NCBI RefSeq assembly: GCF_030285365.1
Contig: NZ_JASVDS010000001.1
Location: 1,116,001 to 1,180,000 of the forward strand
Length of the DNA: 64,000 nucleotides
DNA from: Roseateles subflavus
GTDB taxonomy: Bacteria; Pseudomonadota; Gammaproteobacteria; Burkholderiales; Burkholderiaceae_C
Reading direction: 5' to 3'
In this document: in pieces, positions 2,569-63,332 of the stretch
How positions within the stretch are numbered: the stretch's first letter is position 1
How the letters are laid out: every line of letters starts with the position of its first letter
Program-made: the position numbers and the translations under genes
Notes under the pieces: generated by a model
Told to the model about the DNA's origin: nothing
Databases searched by the model: none
What the model saw: the letters and a program-made list of their open reading frames with translations, nothing else

Positions 2569-3291
2569 ATGATCAATTCGGAGTCCCGCACCGTCATGAA
2601 CGGTGCCGCCGGTCATGGCGCCGCCCCTCCCGAGCGTGACGTCGAGGCATCCCTGCGCCAGCAGCTGAAGGAGGCGCACCAGACCCTGCGGGTGCTCGAG
2701 CGCCATTGCGATCGTCTGGAGGTGGAGCTCCGCGACGGTCTGCGCAGGGAGCGGCGTCACAAGCACCGTGCCGATCACGACGACCTGACGGGACTGTTGA
2801 ACCGGGCGGCGTTCCGGGAGCGAGCGGCCCAGGTCCTCCAGAGCCCTGGCGATCACGCGGTGCTCCTGTTGGACATGGACGACTTCAAGCAAGTCAACGA
2901 CCGCCTCGGGCATGCCGCCGGCGACGACGTGCTGCGCATCGTGGCGGCGCGGCTGGTGCATGTGCTCCGGGCGGGCGACCTCGTCAGCCGCCTGGGCGGG
3001 GATGAGTTCGCCTGCCTCCTGACGGGCATCGTCGATGCGCAGCAACTGCTTGCGCTGGAAGCGAAGCTCGAAGCGGTCATCGCGGCACCCATGCAGCTGG
3101 CATCCCATCGACTCACCACCTCGGCCAGCCTGGGCTTCGCGCGCTGCCCGGCGGAGGGGGCCGACCTGGCCACGCTGCTGGCGTCCGCCGATGCGGCCAT
3201 GTATCTCGCCAAGCGGAGGCATCAGACCTGCGCCTCCCCGGGGGCGGCTGAATGCGGAGGCACCGGCGCCGGCCCCGAGTGCCCGGCGTGA
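2569..3291 (+). CDS. Diguanylate cyclase (GGDEF domain)
   Basis: 240 residues: a charged coiled-coil-like N-terminus (about 25-68) followed by one GGDEF domain (70-225). The active-site motif GGDEF is intact (143-147), as is the metal-binding DMDDF segment near 102. An RAGD inhibitory site lies exactly five residues before GGDEF, so feedback inhibition by cyclic di-GMP is expected. No sensory or membrane domain is visible, so input must come through the coiled coil or a partner. A strong GGAGGAG ribosome-binding site precedes the ATG at 2569; longer in-frame starts overlap the Crp/Fnr gene and were rejected. Tight spacing suggests co-transcription with the two regulators. Confidence 0.88.
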   Translation: MINSESRTVMNGAAGHGAAPPERDVEASLRQQLKEAHQTLRVLERHCDRLEVELRDGLRRERRHKHRADHDDLTGLLNRAAFRERAAQVLQSPGDHAVLLLDMDDFKQVNDRLGHAAGDDVLRIVAARLVHVLRAGDLVSRLGGDEFACLLTGIVDAQQLLALEAKLEAVIAAPMQLASHRLTTSASLGFARCPAEGADLATLLASADAAMYLAKRRHQTCASPGAAECGGTGAGPECPA

Positions 3292-40059: not shown

Positions 40060-43000
40060 ATGCACCGAGCTGTTCTGCGCCTGTCCGCGCTGCTGTTCCT
40101 GTGGATGGGCCTTCAGGGGACCGGTCTGCTGGCCTCGCCCGCCTTCGCGGGGGAGGTGCTTGACGCGCAGTTCCGCAGCATCGAGGTGCCCCAGAACTCC
40201 GTGCCCGCGCTGGCGCAGGACCGCGCCGGCTTCATCTGGGTGGCGACGGTCAAGGGATTGGCCCGCTACGACGGCTACCGGCTGCGCCCCATCGAACAGG
40301 AAGGCCGCACGACCGCCGAGCGCAACCTGGGCTGGGTGCGGGCGCTGGCCGCCGCCCGTGACGGTCGCATGTGGATCGGCACCGAGTTCCAGGGGCTGAT
40401 GGTCTACGACCCGCAGCAGGACCGCCTGCAGCCGCTGGGCAGTGCCGAGGGCAAGGGCCGCGCCCACGCGCCGATCCGGGCGCTGGCCGAGGCCGCCGAC
40501 GGCAGCGTGTGGATGGGCACGGTGGGCCAGGGCCTGCAGCACTATCTCCCGCAGCAGCAGCGCTTCGAGCGCCAGGACCTGCGATTCAAGGGCGAGCCGG
40601 AGCCGCGCGTGACGGCGCTCGCCGTCACGCGGGACGGCACGGTCTGGGCCGGTCACTGGCGGGGTCTCGCACGCCGCGAGGGCGACGCCTGGGTGACGGT
40701 GCCGCTGCCGGGCGGGCGGGACGAGGGCACGGTGCTCGCGCTCGCCGAGGACCGCGACGGCCGCCTGTGGTTCGGCACGCAGGACGGGCGTCTGGGCGTG
40801 GTCGAACAGGGACAGCCGCGCTGGGTGCAGGACCTGAAGGCGCCCATCCAGGCGCTGGCGCAGGCCGAGGACGGCCGCATCTGGGTCGGCGGCAAGGCGG
40901 GCCTGCTCTGGGTGGACCCGAACCGGGGCAGCATCGAGACCTGGCTCCGCCACGACCCGCGGCATTTGCGCGGCCTGGCGGGCAATGACGTCAGCGGCCT
41001 CGTGCGTGACCAGTGGGGCGTGATGTGGGTGAGCGGCTACGGCCTCGGCCTGCAGCGCCATCAGGGGCATCCCGCCCTGGCCGTGCGCGGCCCGGACACG
41101 ACGCCGGACAGCCCGCTGCGGGAGGCGGACGTGCGCGCCCTGCTGCGCCTTCGCAGCGGCGAGATCCTGGCGCCCACGCAGCTCGGTCCGGTCGCGCGGC
41201 TGGATGGCCGCCCCGGGCAGGCGCTGGCGACGCGGGGCGTCTGGCCGCGCGAGCGCAGCAGCGTGGTGGAGTCCCTGAGCCAGGCGGCGGACGGCAGCAT
41301 CTGGCTCGCCTCGGCCGGCCGGCTCGAGCACCGGACCGAGGAGGGCCGCCTGCTGCGGGACTGGCCGCTGGACGGCGGGCGGGCGCAGCAGCTGCTGATC
41401 CGCTCGACCGGCGAGGTGTGGCTGGGCATGCAGGAAGGGCTGTACCGCCTCGCGTCGCCGCAGGCCGCACGGCTCGAGCGCGTCACGCTGGCCGGCGGCG
41501 AGCCGCTGCAGGGCGGCCTCTACGCGCTGCGCGAGGAGCCGGGCAGCCAGGCGCTGTGGGTCGGCGGGCAGCAAGGGCTGTTTCTCGAAGGACCGCAGGG
41601 CCTGCAGCGGCTGGCGCAGGCGCCCGAGGAATCGCTGGGCAGCCCCATCGTGATGGGCCTGCTGTGGTCGCGCGATGGCACGCTGTGGGTGGACACCCCC
41701 GTGAGCGGCCTGCACCGCCGCATCGGCCTGGACGCGCAGGGCCGCTCGCGCTTCGAGCGCATCAGCGAGCGGCACGAGCTCGAGGGCGTGTTCGGCGGCA
41801 ATCTGCACGAGGACGCGCAGGGCCGCATCTGGAGCCAGCTCTACGTCTATGACCCCCGCGCCGACCGCGTCGACGCCTTCGGCCCCGCGGAGGGCGCCTT
41901 CTTCGGCAGCTTCTGGTTCTTCGCCTCCTGTGACCTGCCGGGTGGCGGTCTGCTGTTCGGCGGCAGCCGCGGCCTGCTGCGCGTCCAGCCGGAGGCCTAT
42001 GCACCGCGCCAGGGCTCGCTGCCCGTGGTCATCAGCGGCCTGCGGGTCAACGGCCAGCCCTACCACCCCGAGCGTCTGCAGGACGGCCTGGTGCTGAAAC
42101 CCGGCCTGCGGACGCTGACCGTCGAGTTCGCGGGGCTGGACTACGCCGACCCGCAGCGCCTGCGCTACCAGTACCGCCTGCAGGGTCAGGACGCCGACTG
42201 GACCCGCGTGGACGCCAGCGCCCGCAGCCCCAGCTTCGGGCCGCTCAAGCCGGGCCGCTATGTGCTGCAGGTGCGCGCGACGCCGGTGCAGGGGCCGGGG
42301 CTCATCGGCACGCTGGACCTGCCTCTGGAGCTGCTGCCGGCCTGGTGGCAGACCTGGTGGGCGCGGGCCGGCGCCGGCGTGCTGGTGCTGCTGTCCTTCT
42401 GGGGCTTCGTGCAGTGGCGTACGCGCCGGCTGCGCCATCGCGAGGTCGAACTGCGCGCCCTGGTGGACGCCCGCACCTCGGAGCTGCGCGAGGCCAGCCT
42501 CACCGACACGCTGACGGGCCTGCGCAACCGCCGCTACCTCGCCCTGCGCCTGGAGGACGACCTCCATCTGTGTCTGCGCCGCTTCGAGATCGACGGCGTC
42601 GAGGCGGGCCCGGACAGCGACCTGCTGCTGATGCTGCTGGACCTCGACCACTTCAAGCGCGTGAACGATGTCTACGGCCACGGCGCGGGCGATGCCGTGC
42701 TCGTGCAGCTGGCCGAACGCCTGCGCCGCGTGTTCCGGGGCACGGACTCGCTGGTGCGCTGGGGCGGCGAGGAAGTGCTCGTCCTCGTGCGCGACAGCAG
42801 CCGGGGCAAGGCGGCCGAGCTGGCCGAGCGCGCCTGCGCCGTCATGCGCGAGCGTCCCTTCGACATTGGCGACGGCCGGCAGATTCCGGTGACCGTGTCG
42901 CTGGGCTGGTGTGCCTTCCCGCTGGATCCGCGCCAGCCGCGGGCCTGGGACTGGGCCGCCACGCTGGCCCTCACCGACGTGGCGCTCTACGCCGCCAAGG

Positions 43001-43137
43001 CGCAAGGGCGCGACGGCCACGTCGGCGTCGAGCGGGCCGATGGCCTGACGCCGATGCGCCTGCCCAAGGACTGGTGGCTGGGCCAGCCGCCTGCCGGCCT
43101 GACCGTGCGGCGCAGCCGGGACCGGCTCGGCAGCTGA
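40060..43137 (+). CDS. Beta-propeller sensor diguanylate cyclase (Reg_prop, Y_Y_Y, GGDEF)
   Basis: 1025 residues. A signal peptide or anchor (1-31) is followed by a long periplasmic region of two-component-regulator propeller repeats (about 40-640), recognisable by recurring D-G-x-hydrophobic-W motifs such as DGRMWIG, DGSVWMG and DGRLWFG. A Y_Y_Y domain comes next (about 680-765, FAGLDYADPQRLRYQYRLQG), then one membrane helix (about 772-788), a short linker and a GGDEF domain. The active site reads GGEEV (905-909 or near), with Val in place of Phe, and an RGTD inhibitory site lies five residues upstream. Hybrid sensors of this class detect carbohydrates or other polymers; here the output is cyclic di-GMP. 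The ATG at 40060 gives a proper signal sequence. Confidence 0.9.
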   Translation: MHRAVLRLSALLFLWMGLQGTGLLASPAFAGEVLDAQFRSIEVPQNSVPALAQDRAGFIWVATVKGLARYDGYRLRPIEQEGRTTAERNLGWVRALAAARDGRMWIGTEFQGLMVYDPQQDRLQPLGSAEGKGRAHAPIRALAEAADGSVWMGTVGQGLQHYLPQQQRFERQDLRFKGEPEPRVTALAVTRDGTVWAGHWRGLARREGDAWVTVPLPGGRDEGTVLALAEDRDGRLWFGTQDGRLGVVEQGQPRWVQDLKAPIQALAQAEDGRIWVGGKAGLLWVDPNRGSIETWLRHDPRHLRGLAGNDVSGLVRDQWGVMWVSGYGLGLQRHQGHPALAVRGPDTTPDSPLREADVRALLRLRSGEILAPTQLGPVARLDGRPGQALATRGVWPRERSSVVESLSQAADGSIWLASAGRLEHRTEEGRLLRDWPLDGGRAQQLLIRSTGEVWLGMQEGLYRLASPQAARLERVTLAGGEPLQGGLYALREEPGSQALWVGGQQGLFLEGPQGLQRLAQAPEESLGSPIVMGLLWSRDGTLWVDTPVSGLHRRIGLDAQGRSRFERISERHELEGVFGGNLHEDAQGRIWSQLYVYDPRADRVDAFGPAEGAFFGSFWFFASCDLPGGGLLFGGSRGLLRVQPEAYAPRQGSLPVVISGLRVNGQPYHPERLQDGLVLKPGLRTLTVEFAGLDYADPQRLRYQYRLQGQDADWTRVDASARSPSFGPLKPGRYVLQVRATPVQGPGLIGTLDLPLELLPAWWQTWWARAGAGVLVLLSFWGFVQWRTRRLRHREVELRALVDARTSELREASLTDTLTGLRNRRYLALRLEDDLHLCLRRFEIDGVEAGPDSDLLLMLLDLDHFKRVNDVYGHGAGDAVLVQLAERLRRVFRGTDSLVRWGGEEVLVLVRDSSRGKAAELAERACAVMRERPFDIGDGRQIPVTVSLGWCAFPLDPRQPRAWDWAATLALTDVALYAAKAQGRDGHVGVERADGLTPMRLPKDWWLGQPPAGLTVRRSRDRLGS

Positions 43138-51785: not shown

Positions 51786-51934
51786 GGGATCCTCCGATCG
51801 GGCGGAAATGGGGTCGGCGCAGTATGCGGGCCGGCGGGGGAGGGTGACGGAAGACACCCCGGGGCATCCGCAGCAGCGTCGGTGGCAGGGGCTGGCTACA
51901 GTGCCAGGTCTTGCCTCCGCCGTCCTTTTCCGCC

Positions 51935-53734
51935 ATGTCACTGCCGCGCACGCTCCGCTCCTCTTTCCTGCTGTCCTGCCTGCTGGCGCTGGGCGGCCAG
52001 CCGGCGCTGTCGCTGGCTGCCGGTTCGGACGCCACGCTGCGCACCGAGGCCGAGCGCAGCGGCTTCCAGCGCACCGGGCGCATGGAGGAGGTCGGCCGCC
52101 TGTGCCGTGCCTTCCAGCAGCGCCATCCCCGTGCCGTGCGCTGCACGCGTTTCGGCACCACGCCGGAAGGGCGCCCGCTGTGGGCGATCGTGGCGAGCCA
52201 GAGCGGCGCCCTCACGCCGGCCGAGGCCCGCCGGCGCGGTCTGCCCGTGACGCTGATCCAGGGCGGCATTCACGCCGGCGAGATCGACGGCAAGGACGCC
52301 GGCTTCCTCGCGCTGCGCCAGGTGCTCGACGGCGAGGCCGCGCCCGGCGCGCTGAAGCGGCAGGTGCTCGTGTTCGTGCCGGTCTTCAATGAGGACGGCC
52401 ACGAGCGCTTCGGCGCCTGGAACCGCCCCAACCAGCGCGGCCCGGAGGCCATGGGCTGGCGGACCACGGCGCAGAACTACAACCTCAACCGCGACTACGC
52501 CAAGGCCGATGCGCCGGAGATGCAGGCCATGCTGCGCCTCGTCCAGGCCTGGGACCCGCTCGCGACGATCGACCTGCACGTCACCGACGGCGCGCAGTTC
52601 GAGCACGACGTCTCCATCCAGGTCGAGCCGGTGCATGCCGGCGACGAGGCCCAGCGCCGCAGCGGCCAGGCGCTGCGTGACGGCGTGATCCAGGCGCTGG
52701 CCGCGCAGGGCTCGTTGCCGCAGCCCTTCTACATGTCCTTCGAGAAGATGGACGATCCGTCCTCCGGCTTTGCCGACGGCGTGCCGCCGCCGCGCTTCTC
52801 CACGGGCTACTTCTGGCTGCGCAACCGCTTCGGCATGCTGGTCGAGACGCACTCGTGGAAGGACTACCCGACCCGTGTGCGGATCACCCGCAACACCATC
52901 GTGGCGGTGCTGGCGCAGATCGCCCGGCACGGGGCGCGGTGGCGCGCCGAGGCGCTGGCGGCCGACCTCCGCGCGGCGGGGCTGGCCGGCGCCGAGCAGC
53001 CGCTGGCCTTCGAGGCGAGCGAGCGCAGCCGCCTGATCGACTTCCGGGGCTATGCCTACACGCGCACGCCGTCCGAGATCTCGGGCGCGCTGATGACGCG
53101 CTACGACGAGACCCGCCCCGAGATCTGGCGGGTGCCCTTGCGGGACGACATCCAGCCCGTCCTGAGTGTCCGCGCGCCGGGGGCGGGCTATCTCGTGCCG
53201 GCCGCCCAGGCCGGGCACGTGGGCGAAGTGCTGCGTCGGCATGGCCTGCGTTTCGAGCGGCTGGCCCGAGCGCACGCCGCGCTGCCGGTGCAGACCTTCC
53301 GGGCCGAGCAGGCGCGCTTCGGGGCGCAGTCGGTCGAGGGGCATCAGCGTCTCGACGTGAAGGGCACCTGGCGCGAGGAGCCGCGCGACGTGCCGGCGGG
53401 CAGCCTCTACGTGCCGATCGCGCAGCCGGGCGCCCGGCTCGTGATGGCCCTGCTCGAGCCGCAGGCGCCGGACTCGCTGCTCGCGTGGGGCGCCTTCAAC
53501 AACGCCTTCGAGATGAAGGAGTACATGGAGGACTACGTGGCGGAAGACGTGGCCCGCGCGCAGCTGGCCGCGGATCCGGCGCTGGCGACCGAGTTCCAGC
53601 GCCGCCTGGCCGAGGACGCCGCCTTCGCCGCCGACCCGCGCGCCCGGCTCGCCTTCTTCGCCCGCCGGCACACCTCCTGGGACGAGCGCTACCGGCTGTA
53701 CCCCGTGCTGCGCCTGGAGCAGGCCTTGCCATGA
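51935..53734 (+). CDS. Secreted M14 family zinc carboxypeptidase
   Basis: 599 residues. A signal peptide (about 8-29) precedes the peptidase M14 domain: zinc ligands His113 and Glu116 in GIHAGEIDGKD, substrate-binding NLNRDYAK, the third zinc ligand in IDLHVTDG and the catalytic glutamate in VETHSWKDY. The C-terminal 250 residues (after about 350) are an additional domain of unknown fold present in longer family members. It should remove C-terminal residues from peptides or cell-wall fragments outside the cytoplasm. ATG at 51935 chosen for the signal sequence. Confidence 0.9.
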   Translation: MSLPRTLRSSFLLSCLLALGGQPALSLAAGSDATLRTEAERSGFQRTGRMEEVGRLCRAFQQRHPRAVRCTRFGTTPEGRPLWAIVASQSGALTPAEARRRGLPVTLIQGGIHAGEIDGKDAGFLALRQVLDGEAAPGALKRQVLVFVPVFNEDGHERFGAWNRPNQRGPEAMGWRTTAQNYNLNRDYAKADAPEMQAMLRLVQAWDPLATIDLHVTDGAQFEHDVSIQVEPVHAGDEAQRRSGQALRDGVIQALAAQGSLPQPFYMSFEKMDDPSSGFADGVPPPRFSTGYFWLRNRFGMLVETHSWKDYPTRVRITRNTIVAVLAQIARHGARWRAEALAADLRAAGLAGAEQPLAFEASERSRLIDFRGYAYTRTPSEISGALMTRYDETRPEIWRVPLRDDIQPVLSVRAPGAGYLVPAAQAGHVGEVLRRHGLRFERLARAHAALPVQTFRAEQARFGAQSVEGHQRLDVKGTWREEPRDVPAGSLYVPIAQPGARLVMALLEPQAPDSLLAWGAFNNAFEMKEYMEDYVAEDVARAQLAADPALATEFQRRLAEDAAFAADPRARLAFFARRHTSWDERYRLYPVLRLEQALP

Positions 53735-53762
53735 CGCGCCCGGGGCGGGCCGCGACGCCGGC

Positions 53763-53776
53763 TTGATGCGCATCAA
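53763..53776. promoter_or_regulatory. Perfect FNR-type palindrome
   Basis: TTGATGCGCATCAA matches the FNR/ANR consensus TTGAT-N4-ATCAA exactly. It lies 130 bases before the cyclic-di-GMP aptamer and 28 bases past the M14 peptidase stop codon, so the likely target is the subtilase gene transcript. Confidence 0.55.
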
Positions 53777-53905
53777 GCGTGGACGGCCGCGGCGGCCGCC
53801 GCGGGGAGCGCCGGCCGCGTACAAAGTCGCACGAATGGCCGCCGGCTGCCGCTCACGGCTGGTCAAGTGCCGCGGGAGCCCCTACTGTTCGCCCTACGGG
53901 ATTTC

Positions 53906-54000
53906 CCGTGATCGGCAAACCGCGCGAAAGCGCGGGACGCAAAGCTTCCGGCCTACCGCCAGCGCCCCCGTGACGCCGGCCAGGGCAGCGGGGCCGCCAG
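53906..54000 (+). ncRNA. Class I cyclic-di-GMP riboswitch (GEMM-I)
   Basis: The leader of the subtilase gene contains the aptamer consensus almost without change: GGCAAACC (53914-53921), a hairpin closed by GCGC with a GAAA tetraloop, GGGACGCAAAGC (53934-53945), UUCC, GGCCUA (53950-53955), a variable P2 arm and the 3' conserved GGCAGCGGGGCC (53984-53995). The GNRA loop and its receptor, and the residues that contact the ligand, are all in place. It is 58 bases before the start codon. Expression probably responds to cyclic di-GMP made by the GGDEF enzymes of this genome. Confidence 0.93.
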
Positions 54001-54025
54001 CCGCCGTGCTCCCCGCACGCGACTG

Positions 54026-54049
54026 GCCTCGATGGACGCAGTACGAGGC
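54026..54049 (+). promoter_or_regulatory. Possible riboswitch expression platform masking the subtilase ribosome-binding site
   Basis: GCCTCG (54026-54031) is complementary to CGAGGC (54044-54049), and the latter contains the only purine-rich ribosome-binding sequence (GAGG) before the ATG at 54058. A 6-bp hairpin with a 12-base loop would hide it. Control at translation is therefore possible; the competing structure was not worked out. Confidence 0.45.
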
Positions 54050-54057
54050 AAAACCGC

Positions 54058-55893
54058 ATGAAGACTCCCCTCCTTTCCGCCCTGGCATGGGCGCTGCTGG
54101 CCGCAATCCCGGCGGCTCAGGCCGCCTACCAGCCCGCCGCCATCGGCCCCGAAGGCCTGATCGTGCAGGCCAGCCAGACGGACCGCCTGATCGTGAAGTA
54201 CAAGTCGGGCAAGGGGGCCTTCCCCACCGAGAACGCCCGTCTGGCCGCGCAGATCGCCGGCAACCGGCATGGCGTGCAGCTGAGCCCGCTGCGCCAGATG
54301 GCCAGTGGCGCCCAGGTGTTCAAGATCAGCCGCCGCATGGCCAAGGGGGACATCGACGCCCTGGCCGCCAGCTTCCGCGCGGGTGACGCCAACATCGAGT
54401 ACGTGGAGCCGGACCGCCTGCTGCAGCCGCAGCTGACGCCCACCGACCCGATGTACAGCCAGCAGTGGAGCCTCTTCGATGCCGTGGGCGGCATCCGCGC
54501 CCCCGACGCCTGGAACAGGTCCACCGGCGATGGCGTGACCGTGGCCGTGATCGACACCGGCGTGCGCCCGCATGCGGACTTCTCGGCCAAGCTGCTGCCG
54601 GGCTACGACTTCATCCTGAACACGACCACGGCCGGCGACGGCGGCGGCCGTGACGCCGACGCCAGCGACCCCGGCGACTTCGTGGCCGCGGGCGCCTGCG
54701 GCACGGGCTCCAAGGCCGCGAACAGTTCCTGGCACGGCACGCACGTGAGCGGCATCATCGGCGCCGCGGCCAGCAACGGCATCGGCGTGAGCGGTGTCGC
54801 CTTCAAGGCCCGCCTGCTGCCGGTGCGCGCGCTGGGCAAGTGCGGGGGCTACACCTCGGACATCGCCGACGCCATGGTCTGGGCGGCGGGCGGCACGGTG
54901 ACGGGCGTGCCCGCGAATGCCAACCCGGCCAAGGTCATCAACCTCTCGCTCGGCGGTGCCGGCGCCTGCGACATCACCACGCAGAACGCCATCAACGCGG
55001 CCCGGGCCAAGGGCGCGGTCGTCGTCGTGGCGGCCGGCAATGATGCCAAGGACGCCACCGCCTTCTCTCCGGCGAGCTGCGCGGGCGTGATCACGGTCGC
55101 GGCGACGGGCAAGACCGGCGCGCGTGCCTCCTACTCCAACTTCGGCGCCAAGGTGGCCCTGGCCGCGCCGGGCGGCGACACCACCGGCGCCATCCTGTCC
55201 ACCTACAACACCGGCGCCACCACGCCCGGCACCGACAGCTACGCCGGCATGATGGGCACCTCGATGGCCACGCCCGTGGTCAGCGGCGTCGTGGCCCTGA
55301 TGCTGCAGGCCAACAAGAACCTCACGCCGGATCAGGTGAGCACCCTGCTCAAGAGCAGCGCCCGCGCATTCCCGGCCCCCTGCTCGGGCTGCGGCGCCGG
55401 CCTCGTGGATGCGAATGCCGCCGTGAACGCCGCCCTGGCCGCGGCCGGCACCCCCACGCCGACACCCACGCCGACGCCGACGCCCACGCCGACCCCGACG
55501 CCCACGCCCACGCCCACGCCCACGCCCACGCCCGGCCCGACGGCCATCAAGGAGGCGGAGCCCAACGACAGCGTGGCCAAGGCCCAGGTCATCAGCGTCA
55601 CCAGCGCCGCCATCAGTGGCTCGATGGCCAGCAACACGGACAACGACTACTACCGCTACAGCATCCCCGCCGGCAAGACGCTGAAGGCCACGCTCACCGC
55701 CGGTGCGAGCTCCGGCTTCGGCCTCGGGGCCTACACGAGCAGCGGTCTGCAGCTCGTGCTGTCCAACGGCGTGCTGGGCGCGACGCAGGTGCTGCAGATC
55801 ACGAACACCGGCTCCACGGCCGTGACCGTGGTGCTGCGCGTGCTGCGGACCACCGGCACCACGGGCGGCTACTCGCTCGGCCTGGGCGTCTGA
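54058..55893 (+). CDS. Secreted subtilisin-like serine protease (S8) with PPC domain
   Basis: 611 residues. Signal peptide (1-22), an inhibitor-like propeptide (about 40-120, ending before the LTPTDPMYSQQW segment), the S8 catalytic domain (about 135-460) with triad Asp166 (AVIDTG), His226 (HGTHVSG) and Ser402 (GTSMATP), a Pro-Thr repeat linker (466-492) and a C-terminal pre-peptidase (PPC) domain beginning EPNDSVAKAQ. Cysteines typical of secreted proteobacterial subtilases occur (CGTGS, CGGY, CSGCG). The 323-base leader carries an FNR-like site and a cyclic-di-GMP riboswitch. The 3' end overlaps the convergent sigma-factor gene by 25 bases. Confidence 0.95.
   Translation: MKTPLLSALAWALLAAIPAAQAAYQPAAIGPEGLIVQASQTDRLIVKYKSGKGAFPTENARLAAQIAGNRHGVQLSPLRQMASGAQVFKISRRMAKGDIDALAASFRAGDANIEYVEPDRLLQPQLTPTDPMYSQQWSLFDAVGGIRAPDAWNRSTGDGVTVAVIDTGVRPHADFSAKLLPGYDFILNTTTAGDGGGRDADASDPGDFVAAGACGTGSKAANSSWHGTHVSGIIGAAASNGIGVSGVAFKARLLPVRALGKCGGYTSDIADAMVWAAGGTVTGVPANANPAKVINLSLGGAGACDITTQNAINAARAKGAVVVVAAGNDAKDATAFSPASCAGVITVAATGKTGARASYSNFGAKVALAAPGGDTTGAILSTYNTGATTPGTDSYAGMMGTSMATPVVSGVVALMLQANKNLTPDQVSTLLKSSARAFPAPCSGCGAGLVDANAAVNAALAAAGTPTPTPTPTPTPTPTPTPTPTPTPTPTPGPTAIKEAEPNDSVAKAQVISVTSAAISGSMASNTDNDYYRYSIPAGKTLKATLTAGASSGFGLGAYTSSGLQLVLSNGVLGATQVLQITNTGSTAVTVVLRVLRTTGTTGGYSLGLGV
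55450..55533. repeat. Pro-Thr coding tandem repeat
   Basis: Repeats of CCCACGCCGACG and CCCACGCCCACG encode about 14 Thr-Pro dipeptides linking protease and PPC domains. The near-identical units make copy-number change by slippage likely, which would vary linker length without breaking the frame. Confidence 0.85.
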
Positions 55894-57242
55894 GCCCCAC
55901 GACCCTTTTCTTCGTCCTTGCTCCTCCCTTTGAGCGCGCGCTGCAGCAGCAGAGCGCGCTCTTTTTCATTGAGGCTCAGGGCGGCCGCCTGCTCGAAGGC
56001 CGCCGCCGCCTCCGCCCAGCGCTGCTGGCGCTCCAGCAGGTCGCCCCGCACGCTGTGCCACCAGGGGTAGCGCTGCATCGGGCCGTCCGCGCCGAGCGCG
56101 TCGACGAGCAGCAGCGCCTCGGCGGCACTGCCTTGCGGCGCGCGGCTCAGGGCCACGGCCCGGTTGAGCGCGACGACGGGGGAGGGCCAGCCCTCCAGCA
56201 GCCGGGTGTAGAGGCCCAGGATCAGCGACCAGTCCGTGTCCTCGGGCCGCGTGGCGCGCGCATGGCAGGCGGCGATGCCCGCCTGTAGCAGGTAGTAGCC
56301 CGGCGCCGCGCCCAGCGCGCGGCAGGCGGCCTCGCCGGCCGCGAGCGCGGCCAGGCCGCGGCGGATGAGCAGGCTGTCCCAGCGCCGGCGGTCCTGGTCC
56401 ATCAGCAGGACCGGGGCCCCGTGGGCGTCGAGACGCGCGGCCTGCCGCGACGCTTGGATCTCGACCAGGGCGAGCAGCCCCAGCACCTCGGGCTCCTGCG
56501 GCAGCTGCGAGGCCAGCAGGCGCGCCAGGCGCTGGGCCTCGGCCATGAGGTCCGGCCGCAGCCAGTCGCTGCCGGAGCTGGCGGCATAGCCCTCGTTGAA
56601 GATGAGGTAGACCACCTCCAGCACCGCGCCCAGGCGCTGCAGGCGCTCGGCCGGGCCGGGCAGCTCGAAGGGCACCTGGGCCTCGCTGAGCGTGCGCTTG
56701 GCACGGCTGATGCGCTGCGCCACGGTGGGCTCGGGGCACAGATAGGCGCGGGCGATCTCCGCGGTGCTCAAGCCGCCCAGGAGCCGCAGCGTCAGCGCCG
56801 CGCGGGCCTCGGGCGAGAGCAGCGGGTGGCAGGCCGTGAAGATGAGGCGCAGCAGGTCATCCCCGATGTCGTCGGCGCGGCGCTCGTCCAGGCGGTCGCT
56901 GAGGTCCGGCACGACGTGCTCCTGCCGTGCCTCCAGGTCCTGCGCCAGCGCCTCGTGGTGGCGCTCCTGCATGCGCTGCTGGCGCAGGCGGTCCAGCGCG
57001 CGGTGGCGGGCGGTGGTCATCAGCCAGGCGCCCGGCTTGTCGGGAAAGCCCTCGCGCGGCCAGTGCTCCAGCGCGGCCAGCAGCGCCTCCTGTGCGATCT
57101 CCTCGGCCTCGTCCAGGTCCCGCAGCAGGCGCCGCACGGCCCCGATGACGACGGCCGACTCCAGCCGCCACAGCGCGGCCACGCGGGCGCGCAGGGCGGC
57201 GCCGTCATCGCCGCCAGGGCCGTCGCGCGGGGCCTCACTCAT
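55869..57242 (-). CDS. RNA polymerase sigma factor, ECF42-like with C-terminal extension
   Basis: 457 residues, far longer than the usual 180-200 of ECF sigma factors. Region 2 includes DLDEAEEIAQEALLAALEHWP and region 4 the helix-turn-helix LSTAEIARAYLCPEPTVAQRISRAKRTL. The extra 250 residues form a helical, tetratricopeptide-like extension with the motif YLIFNEGYAASSG, characteristic of ECF42. Sigma factors of this group lack anti-sigma factors and are encoded with YciI/DGPF proteins, two of which lie in the same run of genes. The start overlaps the VOC gene stop by 4 bases, so the sigma gene is last in the operon and probably activates it. Confidence 0.92.
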   Translation of the reverse strand: MSEAPRDGPGGDDGAALRARVAALWRLESAVVIGAVRRLLRDLDEAEEIAQEALLAALEHWPREGFPDKPGAWLMTTARHRALDRLRQQRMQERHHEALAQDLEARQEHVVPDLSDRLDERRADDIGDDLLRLIFTACHPLLSPEARAALTLRLLGGLSTAEIARAYLCPEPTVAQRISRAKRTLSEAQVPFELPGPAERLQRLGAVLEVVYLIFNEGYAASSGSDWLRPDLMAEAQRLARLLASQLPQEPEVLGLLALVEIQASRQAARLDAHGAPVLLMDQDRRRWDSLLIRRGLAALAAGEAACRALGAAPGYYLLQAGIAACHARATRPEDTDWSLILGLYTRLLEGWPSPVVALNRAVALSRAPQGSAAEALLLVDALGADGPMQRYPWWHSVRGDLLERQQRWAEAAAAFEQAAALSLNEKERALLLQRALKGRSKDEEKGRGAQTPRPSE

Positions 57243-60773: not shown

Positions 60774-63332
60774 ATGATTGCCGCGCCCCTGCGAGATGAC
60801 GAGGAACGGGCCCTGGCCGCTCTGCGCGCCTTGCAGGTGCTGGACAGCGCGCCCGAGCCCGAGTTCGATGCCCTCGTCCGCACCGCCTCGCTGGTCTGCG
60901 GGGTGCCGGTGTCCACGCTCACGCTGATTGACGCGCACCGCCAGTGGTTCAAGGCCCAGGCGGGAATGCCGGGTCTGTCGGAGGCGCCGCGCGACATCGC
61001 CTTCTGTGCCCATGCGGTGCTGGGGGATGCGATCTTCGAGGTGCCGGACGCCCGTCTGGACGAACGCTTCGCCGACAACCCGCTGGTGCTGGGCGAGCCC
61101 TACCTCCGCTTCTATGCCGGGGCGCCGCTGCGACTGAGCGGCGGGGAGCACGTCGGCACGCTGTGCGTGATGGACCGCGAGCCGCGCCGGCTCGACGGCA
61201 CGCAGCGCGAGGTCCTGCAGCAGCTCGCCGTGGTCGCCAGCCAGCTGCTGGAAGGGCGGCGCGCGCGACGCATCGAGCGCCACGCCATGGCCGAGGCCAC
61301 CCGGGCGGCGTCCCTGCTGCAGCACAGCGCGGACGCCATCCTCAGCATCGACCGCCAGGGGCGCATCTGCCGGGCGAACGCGGCGGCCGAGCGCCTCTTC
61401 GGCGCGGCGCCGCTGCAGCTCCTGGGACGGCCGCATGCCGACCTGGTGCCCGCGCCGCTGCAGGCCCGCGAGCTCAACAACCGGCAGGCGCTCGGCGCCG
61501 GCGAAGCCTTCAGCCATGAGAGTGAACGCCTGCGCCTCGACGGGCAGCGGCTGCTGGTGTCCGTCACGCTGGTGGCGGAGTCCGGCCCGCAACCGGAGGA
61601 CGGCGGCGCCACGGAATTCATCCGCGACATCACCGCCCGCGAAGAGGCCGCCCAGGCCCTGGCCGTCAGCGCCGAGCGCTTCCGCAGCCTCAGCGACTGC
61701 GTGCCGGTGGGCGTGTTCCACGTCGACCGCAGCGGGCTGTCGGGCTACACGAACGAGCGGTGGCGGCAGATCTACCAGCTCTCGCTCGGGCAGGTGAGCC
61801 ACGAGGCCTGGCTGGCGTGCGTCCACCCGGAGGACCGCGACCGCGTCCGTGAGGCCTCGCATCTCAGCCAGGGCGGCAACATGCCCTTTGACGAAACCTA
61901 CCGCGTGGTGTGGCCCAGCGGCGAGATCCGCCATGTGCGCAGCCGCGCGCAGGAGCTGCTGAGCCTGCGCGGCGAGCCCCTGGGCTTCGTGGGCATGGTG
62001 GAGGACATCACCGAGCGGCGCGCCTTCGAGAGCCAGCTCGTGCAGGCGCGGGACCAGGCGCGCGCGGCGGCGCAGGAGGCGCTCGAGAACGCCCGCCTGC
62101 TGCGCAACATCGCCGATGCCGTGCCGGGGCTCGTCGCGTACTGGCGGCGGGACCTCAGCTGCCGCTTCGCGAGCCGCTCCTTCCTGGACTGGTACGGCCG
62201 CAGCCGCGAGGAGATGCTGCAGCTGACCATGCCCGAGGTGCTCGGCGCGGACGCCTTCGCGCGCACGCAGCCCTATCTGGGCGGTGTGCTGGCCGGGGAG
62301 GTGCAGGCCTTCGAGCGCAGCATCCGCCGGCCCGACGGCCGCCTGGGCCACATGCTGGTCCACTACGTGCCCGACACCGACGCGCGGGGCGAGGTGCGCG
62401 GCATCTTCGCCGTCGCCAACGACGTGACGAGTCTGAAACTCGCCCAGCGCGAGCTGATGCTGGCGGCCACCGTCCTGGATGCCACGGTGGACGCCATCAT
62501 GGTGACGGACGCCCAGGGCGTCATCCTGTCCGTCAACCCGGCCTTCACCGCGATCACGGGCTTCGAGGCGCAGGAGGTGCTCGGGCGCACCCTGGACCTG
62601 CTGGGCCGCGATGACCCGGCACTGGAGGCACAGGCCCGGCTGGCGCTGCGCACGCAGCGGCACTGGCAGGGCGAGCTGTGGCGGCGTCGCAAGAGCGGCG
62701 AGGCCTTCCTGCAGTGGCTGGATGTGAGCCTGATCCCCGACGACGACGGCGCGGGCGAGCGCCTGCTGCATGTGTTCAGCGATGGCACCGAGCGCCGCCA
62801 GCGCGACGAGCGCCTGCGCCACCTGGCCTTCCACGACGCGCTCACGGGGCTGGCCAACCGCAGCCTGCTGATGGAGCGGCTGAGCCGCCTCCTGGGCCAG
62901 ACGCACCGCGAGCGCCGCGAGCTGGCGCTCATGTACATGGACCTGGACGGCTTCAAGGCCGTCAACGACAGCGTGGGCCACGCCCAGGGCGATGCGCTGC
63001 TGCGCCTCGTGGCGGCCCGCATGACGCCGCTGGTGCGAGACACCGACACCCTGGCCCGCCTGGGCGGCGACGAGTTCGTCCTGCTGCTGGACCAGGCCGC
63101 CGGCATGCAGGAGCTCGAGCAGGTGGCGGGGCGGCTCATCGAGGCGGTCAGCCAGCCGGTGGTGCTCGCGGGGCAGAGCGTGGTGGTGGGCGTTTCCGTG
63201 GGCATCGCCCGTTTCCCGCTGGACGGGCGCAGCGTGGAGACGCTGATGCGCGCGGCTGATCTCGCCATGTATGCCGCCAAGGCGGGCGGACGCAATCGCT
63301 GGCAGTTTGCCGACCCGCCGGACACGGCCTGA
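60774..63332 (+). CDS. GAF/PAS multi-domain diguanylate cyclase
   Basis: 852 residues, no membrane segment. An N-terminal GAF domain (about 20-165), four PAS-like domains (about 180-295, 300-425, 440-560 and 565-680; the second and third each end in a PAC-type segment such as VEDITERRA) and a C-terminal GGDEF domain (about 690-845). The active site is GGDEF, in RLGGDEFVLLL, and an RDTD inhibitory site lies five residues upstream. No EAL domain follows. It makes cyclic di-GMP in response to cytoplasmic signals sensed by the GAF and PAS modules. ATG at 60774. Confidence 0.92.
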   Translation: MIAAPLRDDEERALAALRALQVLDSAPEPEFDALVRTASLVCGVPVSTLTLIDAHRQWFKAQAGMPGLSEAPRDIAFCAHAVLGDAIFEVPDARLDERFADNPLVLGEPYLRFYAGAPLRLSGGEHVGTLCVMDREPRRLDGTQREVLQQLAVVASQLLEGRRARRIERHAMAEATRAASLLQHSADAILSIDRQGRICRANAAAERLFGAAPLQLLGRPHADLVPAPLQARELNNRQALGAGEAFSHESERLRLDGQRLLVSVTLVAESGPQPEDGGATEFIRDITAREEAAQALAVSAERFRSLSDCVPVGVFHVDRSGLSGYTNERWRQIYQLSLGQVSHEAWLACVHPEDRDRVREASHLSQGGNMPFDETYRVVWPSGEIRHVRSRAQELLSLRGEPLGFVGMVEDITERRAFESQLVQARDQARAAAQEALENARLLRNIADAVPGLVAYWRRDLSCRFASRSFLDWYGRSREEMLQLTMPEVLGADAFARTQPYLGGVLAGEVQAFERSIRRPDGRLGHMLVHYVPDTDARGEVRGIFAVANDVTSLKLAQRELMLAATVLDATVDAIMVTDAQGVILSVNPAFTAITGFEAQEVLGRTLDLLGRDDPALEAQARLALRTQRHWQGELWRRRKSGEAFLQWLDVSLIPDDDGAGERLLHVFSDGTERRQRDERLRHLAFHDALTGLANRSLLMERLSRLLGQTHRERRELALMYMDLDGFKAVNDSVGHAQGDALLRLVAARMTPLVRDTDTLARLGGDEFVLLLDQAAGMQELEQVAGRLIEAVSQPVVLAGQSVVVGVSVGIARFPLDGRSVETLMRAADLAMYAAKAGGRNRWQFADPPDTA

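What the first reader, a model, noticed from the sequence alone, without database searches (positions are those of the whole stretch)
53906..54058. Cyclic-di-GMP riboswitch controlling a secreted subtilase
The GEMM-I consensus is nearly complete in the subtilase leader, including the GAAA tetraloop hairpin, GGGACGCAAAGC and the GGCCUA and AGCGGGG elements. A hairpin (54026-54049) could hide the ribosome-binding site. Control of a secreted protease by a c-di-GMP riboswitch would link motile/sessile switching to extracellular proteolysis.
Basis: partly seen in the sequence, partly recalled or inferred. Interest (0 to 1): 0.75.

Follow-up and report, generated by a model that had tools for sequence, protein, structure and literature searches.

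The report
RNA switch controlling a secreted protease
A leader RNA of the kind that senses the bacterial signal cyclic-di-GMP sits in front of a probably secreted protein-digesting enzyme in a Roseateles-like bacterium, and relatives suggest that it hides the enzyme's ribosome site when the signal is high.

Summary
Positions 53904-54001 (+) match Rfam c-di-GMP-I at 57.4 bits (cut-off 35), the only such match in this genome, 56 bases before a subtilase (54058-55893). Pocket bases G20, A47 and C92 are present.

Relatives suggest the mechanism. In 14 of 14 aligned ortholog leaders the aptamer's last strand, holding C92, pairs with bases just before the anti-Shine-Dalgarno (hairpin A), with covariation that 0 of 500 shuffles reach. 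Two bases that close hairpin A also complete the Shine-Dalgarno hairpin. Ligand binding should bury the ribosome site: a translational OFF switch. Binding and direction are inferred; the window's own copy is among the weaker ones.

Two wider results. Subtilases follow 36 of 149 c-di-GMP-I RNAs in sampled genomes of this family, in several subtilase lineages, but 0 of 55 outside the order. And G20 is C in 12 of 18 distinct ortholog leaders, not in the window, although changing it in Vc2 reportedly costs 30,000-fold in binding. The window RNA is a canonical member of a known class with a target I did not find in print.

The parts
53904..54001 (+). c-di-GMP-I (GEMM-I) aptamer, RF01051
   Evidence: cmscan 57.4 bits, cut-off 35
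53914..53914 (+). ligand-contact G20 equivalent (C in 12 of 18 distinct ortholog leaders)
53920..53935 (+). P2 hairpin with GAAA tetraloop 53926-53929
53941..53941 (+). ligand-contact A47 equivalent
53997..53997 (+). ligand-contact C92 equivalent, also in the 5' arm of hairpin A
53996..54027 (+). hairpin A: GCCAG 53996-54000 with CTGGC 54023-54027, inner stem 54006-54009/54015-54018
   Evidence: covariation across 14 orthologs, 0 of 500 shuffles reach the score; MFE structure
54026..54049 (+). hairpin B, Shine-Dalgarno sequestering: GCCTCG 54026-54031 with CGAGGC 54044-54049; shares 54026-54027 with hairpin A
   Evidence: 97.6% of cells paired in 14 orthologs
54045..54048 (+). Shine-Dalgarno GAGG, 9 nt before ATG 54058
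53896..53909 (+). small hairpin ACGGGA/TCCCGT that overlaps the place of the usual P1 5' strand; similar letters, by eye, in the two other genomes of the genus
54058..55893 (+). subtilase, 611 aa: signal-peptide-like N terminus (by eye), DTG 166, HGTH 226, GTSM 400, Thr-Pro linker, C-terminal part
   Evidence: PF00082 E 8.4e-59

Best explanation
The leader is a class-I c-di-GMP riboswitch that works as a translational OFF switch. With no ligand, the last strand of the aptamer (GCC, with C92) pairs with GGC just before the anti-Shine-Dalgarno, forming hairpin A; the Shine-Dalgarno hairpin is then only 4 bp and opens more easily, so the subtilase is made. When c-di-GMP occupies the pocket, C92 is taken, hairpin A loses its closing GCC:GGC pairs, and the freed GC extends the Shine-Dalgarno hairpin to 6 bp, closing the ribosome site. 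Low c-di-GMP (motile or dispersing cells) would thus release the protease. Shown: aptamer match, pocket bases, target gene, conservation of both hairpins, covariation of hairpin A, their shared bases. Inferred: ligand binding, exchange on binding, direction, biological role.
For: Aptamer. Pocket bases. Hairpin A plus the short form of hairpin B, on an alignment not fitted to them: 94.0% of cells paired against 24-50% when slid by 1-3 columns, covariation score 0.402 against 0.152 in shuffles (0 of 500); 6 of 9 hairpin A pairs have changes on both sides, the other 3 (GCC:GGC) are invariant in 14 of 14. Hairpin B, full: 97.6% paired. In 14 of 14 orthologs, denying GCC to hairpin A raises the modelled cost of opening the SD, by 1.1 to 8.2 kcal/mol; 62 of 840 shuffles reach 1.0, shuffle mean -0.34. 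Five leaders not used to build the model (one identical to a training row) keep 9-10 of 10 hairpin A pairs and show the same sign. The design marks this ortholog group among those examined: shuffle p <= 0.05 in 9 of 14, against 0 of 27 other subtilase leaders and 2 of 71 non-subtilase leaders. 46 GGDEF matches in the genome.
Against: The window's copy is among the weaker: its hairpin A has a 5-bp closing stem (shuffle p 0.145; 5 of 14 group members miss p 0.05) and a modelled gain of 1.5 kcal/mol, which 3 of 60 shuffles reach. The models leave the SD mostly paired in both states (mean unpaired 0.09 free, 0.007 taken; window 0.07 and 0.00; in L137 0.01 both ways), so the size of the effect is uncertain. 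A canonical P1 helix is weak: 2 of 5 pairs, and a hairpin overlaps its 5' strand. Most orthologs carry C at position 20, which should harm c-di-GMP binding. Hairpin B has little covariation (29 of 500 shuffles as high), as expected where the SD is fixed.
Confidence: 0.65

Rival explanations
1. c-di-GMP-I riboswitch, but an ON switch: ligand binding would favour an open ribosome site, so that sessile cells make the protease.
For: Class I riboswitches of both signs are reported; a review calls Vc2 a gene-on switch (PMC12564702, passages).
Against: I saw no alternative pairing that would open the SD when GCC is taken (no systematic search was made); the modelled cost moves the other way in 14 of 14 orthologs.
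Confidence: 0.15
2. The aptamer of this ortholog group reads another ligand, or both c-di-GMP and another cyclic dinucleotide; the window copy with G20 is one state of a pocket that changes.
For: Position 20 is C in 13 of 19 loci (12 of 18 distinct leaders) of the group, against 2 of 86 in the order-wide set, one of those two being a group member. Parsimony needs 3 changes among the 14 on the protein tree. A47 and C92 are kept in all 14 aligned rows.
Against: The window itself has the canonical G20, A47, C92; the same gene and platform under both states suggest one signal.
Confidence: 0.12
3. The aptamer is a relic and hairpin B is only a constitutive brake on translation.
For: Weak P1 and modest modelled effect in the window copy.
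Against: 57.4-bit match with intact pocket; the leader is kept in a group of 14 orthologs on one side of a branch (99% SH-aLRT), and hairpin A covaries from the C92 strand on.
Confidence: 0.06
4. Control is by transcription termination rather than translation.
For: The functional C. difficile class I switches act by termination (PMC6366702, passages).
Against: No intrinsic-terminator-like site in 53700-54100; hairpin B is followed by AAAACCGC, not a U run. Rho-dependent loss after translational block is not excluded.
Confidence: 0.05

Closest known systems
c-di-GMP-I (GEMM-I) riboswitch, RF01051; Vc2 and Vc1 of Vibrio cholerae
   Same: Covariance-model match, P2 with GNRA loop, P3, G20/A47/C92
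   Different: Weak P1; a two-hairpin platform ending on the Shine-Dalgarno; target is a subtilase rather than gbpA or a tfoX-like gene (targets from PMC12564702, passages)
C. difficile class I OFF riboswitches and the protease ZmpI/PPEP-1, which releases surface proteins encoded behind class II riboswitches (PMC6366702, passages; that PPEP-1 itself is under a class I switch is recalled)
   Same: A secreted protease tied to c-di-GMP, predicted here to be made when c-di-GMP is low
   Different: Zinc metalloprotease and transcription termination there; serine protease and ribosome-site masking here; substrate unknown
cAMP-GMP (GEMM-Ib) and c-di-GMP-I-GGC / -UAU variant classes (the two latter names seen in PMC12452182, passages; what defines them is recalled)
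   Same: Same scaffold; pocket bases vary
   Different: The window has canonical G20; the state of most orthologs is C20 with A47 and C92, which the two pocket-related paper searches (listings and some passages) did not show
Subtilases AprV2 and BprV (named extracellular in the PDB; of Dichelobacter nodosus, recalled) and Pseudoalteromonas arctica 5yl7
   Same: Catalytic domain matches over 333-335 residues, E 4.4e-123 (5yl7) to 6.1e-89 (3ti7, BprV)
   Different: Whether those genes carry a riboswitch was not tested

Membership tests
c-di-GMP-I riboswitch (RF01051) | Covariance-model score above gathering threshold | tested here: met
   57.4 against 35 bits
c-di-GMP-I riboswitch (RF01051) | P2 with GNRA tetraloop, and P3 pairs | tested here: met
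   CM alignment over the full model, 4 non-standard pair positions marked; pairs kept in 13-14 of 14 orthologs
c-di-GMP-I riboswitch (RF01051) | Ligand contacts G20, A47, C92 | tested here: met
   53914 G, 53941 A, 53997 C
c-di-GMP-I riboswitch (RF01051) | P1 helix closing the pocket | tested here: inconclusive
   2 of 5 pairs, 3 with one bulge; the 86 RNAs range from 0 to 5
c-di-GMP-I riboswitch (RF01051) | Binds c-di-GMP | not testable with these tools
   needs in-line probing or ITC
cAMP-GMP (GEMM-Ib) riboswitch | A at position 20 (recalled as the mark of the class; PMC7288161, passages, says that a G20A mutant binds cGAMP) | tested here: not met
   G at 53914
Peptidase S8 (subtilase) | Full catalytic domain with Asp, His, Ser motifs | tested here: met
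   PF00082 1-288 of 288; DTG 166, HGTH 226, GTSM 400
Peptidase S8 (subtilase) | Secreted | tested here: inconclusive
   signal-peptide-like N terminus read by eye; some of the nearest solved relatives are named extracellular; no signal-peptide program was run

The most novel reading that the evidence does not exclude
Within one protease-controlling riboswitch lineage the ligand-reading base switches between G20 and C20 while scaffold, A47, C92 and the ribosome-masking platform are held. This would be a natural pocket variant (C20-A47-C92), either one with changed cyclic-dinucleotide selectivity or one that binds c-di-GMP in a new way, with the window carrying the G20 state. The same order has linked c-di-GMP-I RNAs to unrelated subtilases several times.
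Probability: 0.3. Interest if true: 0.75.

Novelty: new member of a known kind. Interest (0 to 1): 0.5.

Why it matters
It gives a specific, testable link between c-di-GMP and extracellular proteolysis in Burkholderiales, with a translational switch whose moving part can be named to the base (GGC shared by two hairpins). Subtilases are the most frequent Pfam family behind c-di-GMP-I RNAs in the order-wide sample (14 of 86 ORFs scanned), in several subtilase lineages, which points to repeated recruitment or repeated loss. The G20/C20 variation offers natural pairs of leaders for asking how the pocket reads its ligand.

Tried and rejected
Plain energy folding of the leader gives no signal (z -0.40). 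A sigma-70 promoter or intrinsic terminator near the leader was looked for and not found. A model built from the ortholog leaders gave only one weak match, on the other strand (L099, 14.4 bits, E 0.1), in 31 loci: 26 of the 35 related loci without RF01051 and the other five subtilase loci of this genome. So the riboswitch is not general to the protein family.

The hairpin A design was sought in the other fetched leaders and is rare (0 of 27 other subtilase leaders, 2 of 71 non-subtilase leaders at shuffle p <= 0.05, base-composition shuffles). Subtilase association outside the order: 0 of 55 RNAs in 29 genomes. Weinberg 2007 is not held, so I could not check its list of GEMM-associated genes. 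Paper searches on the target: subtilisin 0, peptidase S8 0, subtilase 1, GEMM with protease 19, Burkholderiales 1, extracellular protease 6. Of these papers I saw passages of three, all (PMC6366702, PMC12564702, PMC4744006); the rest as listings only. The library lacks most subscription journals.

Counting limits. Of the 86 RNAs, one is below Rfam's cut-off (L085); of the 55 outside the order, one is (G218). The genome search cut its lists of weak subtilase matches, so linked counts are lower bounds. RNA and subtilase coordinates were compared by eye; of the 25 linked loci so found, 24 match the window subtilase by blastp (L134 only at E 8e-4), and L147 rests on a Pfam match of E 1.2e-6. In one search only the longest ORF per RNA was scanned, cut at 520 residues, and for L056 this was a wrong frame; blastp gives 15 of 86. 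The tree is a quick search with long branches; L147 and L202 gave no usable domain and are not in it, and its unlinked rows were chosen by me, not at random. mis-set the start of hairpin A in L157; one search repeats it correctly.

Full report
OBSERVATION. The leader at 53904-54001 (+) is a c-di-GMP-I riboswitch aptamer by the standard test: cmscan of the whole window against Rfam gives this one match at or above any gathering score, 57.4 bits against 35, over the full model. It is the only such match in the genome. Pocket bases G20, A47 and C92 are at 53914, 53941 and 53997 (numbering mapped by me). The next gene, 54058-55893, is a 611-aa subtilase (PF00082, E 8.4e-59) with Asp, His and Ser motifs in place; among its nearest solved relatives are proteases named extracellular. 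The genome lies with Roseateles/Pelomonas/Mitsuaria: the two other genomes of its genus have contigs of the same length and place as Pelomonas sp. BJYL3 and Mitsuaria sp. WAJ17. The genome has 46 GGDEF matches and 6 subtilase matches.

EXPRESSION PLATFORM. The window's leader alone is weak evidence, so I collected relatives. Of 38 loci related to the protein in public genomes, 3 have RF01051. Searches of genomes of the same order and family added more. Fourteen leaders (the window's and those of 13 orthologs with 50-87% identity to its protein; the lowest is L126) were aligned from aptamer to ATG (A2). Two features recur. First, the aptamer's last strand, starting GCC with C92 in it, pairs with a segment ending GGC (hairpin A). 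Its sequence drifts while pairing holds: GCCAG/CTGGC in the window, GCCAACCCG/CGGGTTGGC in L125, GCCGACCC/GGGTCGGC in L088. On the MAFFT alignment, hairpin A plus the short form of hairpin B has 94.0% of cells paired and a covariation score of 0.402 against a shuffled mean of 0.152 (0 of 500), and falls to 24-50% paired when slid by 1-3 columns; hairpin A alone is 92.9% paired. Second, the next bases, GGCCTCG, are complementary to CGAGGC, which holds the Shine-Dalgarno (hairpin B; 97.6% paired). Hairpin B shows little covariation (29 of 500 shuffles as high) because the SD is fixed; only L126 changed both sides of a pair. The GC of GGC is needed by both hairpins.

MECHANISM. C92 contacts the ligand in Vc2 (PMC4744006, passages; that it pairs with a guanine of c-di-GMP is established knowledge), so binding and full hairpin A should exclude one another. 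Denying GCC to hairpin A raises the modelled cost of opening the SD in 14 of 14 leaders, by 1.1 to 8.2 kcal/mol, 1.5 in the window. In shuffled controls the mean is -0.34; 3 of 60 shuffles reach the window's value, 0 of 60 in each of the other 13. A model built from A2 and run over 399 family genomes gives 18 strong matches (96.9-135.1 bits) and then a gap to 77.1. Thirteen of the 18 are in A2; five were new, one with the same leader as L088. All five keep 9-10 of 10 hairpin A pairs and the same sign of the energy change (2.0 to 5.1). This predicts OFF: c-di-GMP closes the ribosome site. The models keep the SD largely paired in both states, and in L137 the unpaired fraction does not rise, so the amplitude is open.

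ORIGIN. On a protein tree of 29 rows the 14 riboswitch-bearing orthologs are one side of a branch with 99% SH-aLRT support; 15 of the 35 relatives without it, from Massilia, Azohydromonas, Actinomycetota and others, lie outside (quick tree). The leader model found no convincing leader in 26 of those 35 or at the genome's other five subtilase loci.

WIDER PATTERN. In 149 genomes of the order (own included), 52 have 86 RF01051 matches, 85 of them over the cut-off. Of the 86 longest downstream ORFs, 14 are subtilases, the most frequent Pfam family; blastp gives 15. In 299 genomes of the family, 87 have 149 matches (summed from its table); 36 of these precede a subtilase (11, 25). In 29 genomes outside the order, 0 of 55 do; Fisher p 5e-6, without correction for kinship. 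The 52 genomes hold 181 subtilase matches (summed), about 3.5 each; with some 4,000 genes per genome (my assumption) chance would put well under one behind 86 RNAs. A tree of 101 subtilases holds 40 linked rows (39 of the 40 linked loci of the genome searches, plus L088) and 61 unlinked ones that I picked: the linked rows do not form one group, with 12 changes by parsimony and 6 forced by supported branches. Changes may be gains or losses.

POCKET VARIANT. Position 20 is G in the window, but C in 8 of the 14 aligned leaders and in all 5 added ones: 13 of 19 loci, 12 of 18 distinct leaders. In the 86-RNA set 2 have C, one of them an ortholog leader, and 3 have A. Fisher p 2e-10 for 12 of 18 against 1 of 82, again inflated by kinship; parsimony needs 3 changes among the 14, and in the group table, which counts rows without riboswitch as 'other', supported branches force 2. 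PMC4744006 (passage) cites a 30,000-fold loss of c-di-GMP binding on mutating G20 in Vc2, and adds that the equivalent change in Vc1 did not fully abolish binding. PMC9049102 (passages) says G20 and C92 are less conserved than A47. Whether C20 leaders bind c-di-GMP is the most interesting open point.

VERDICT. The window element is a canonical member of a known riboswitch class, with a target (subtilase) that the searches did not show in print; its platform was searched for once (21 papers, 15 seen as listings), which does not settle whether such a design is known. Interest is moderate.

Noticed in passing
25 of 86 order-wide RF01051 loci (e.g. L020, L057, L062, L063): A sequence variant with GCACACC in place of GCAAACC, always together with TCGCAAAG in place of ACGCAAAG (25 of 25). 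DUF1631 is the second most frequent downstream family (10 of 86); a link with this variant was not checked.
   Followed up: partly
L142, L143, L220 (G691:C1:432190-438700): Nearly identical tandem subtilase genes; two have their own RF01051 match, and none was listed for the first.
   Followed up: no
G175:C36:975-1279 and L079 (G104:C1): Pairs of c-di-GMP-I RNAs on the same strand, about 0.2 kb and 1.2 kb apart.
   Followed up: no
window 2770-3225, 42499-43014, 62826-63299: Three GGDEF domains within this 64-kb window, of 46 matches in the genome (coordinates converted).
   Followed up: no
window 51911-53734: An M14 zinc carboxypeptidase (PF00246, E 1e-20) directly upstream on the same strand, so two peptidase genes are neighbours.
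   Followed up: no
window 55869-57242 (-): Sigma-70 region 2/4 protein with DUF6596, convergent with and overlapping the end of the subtilase ORF.
   Followed up: no
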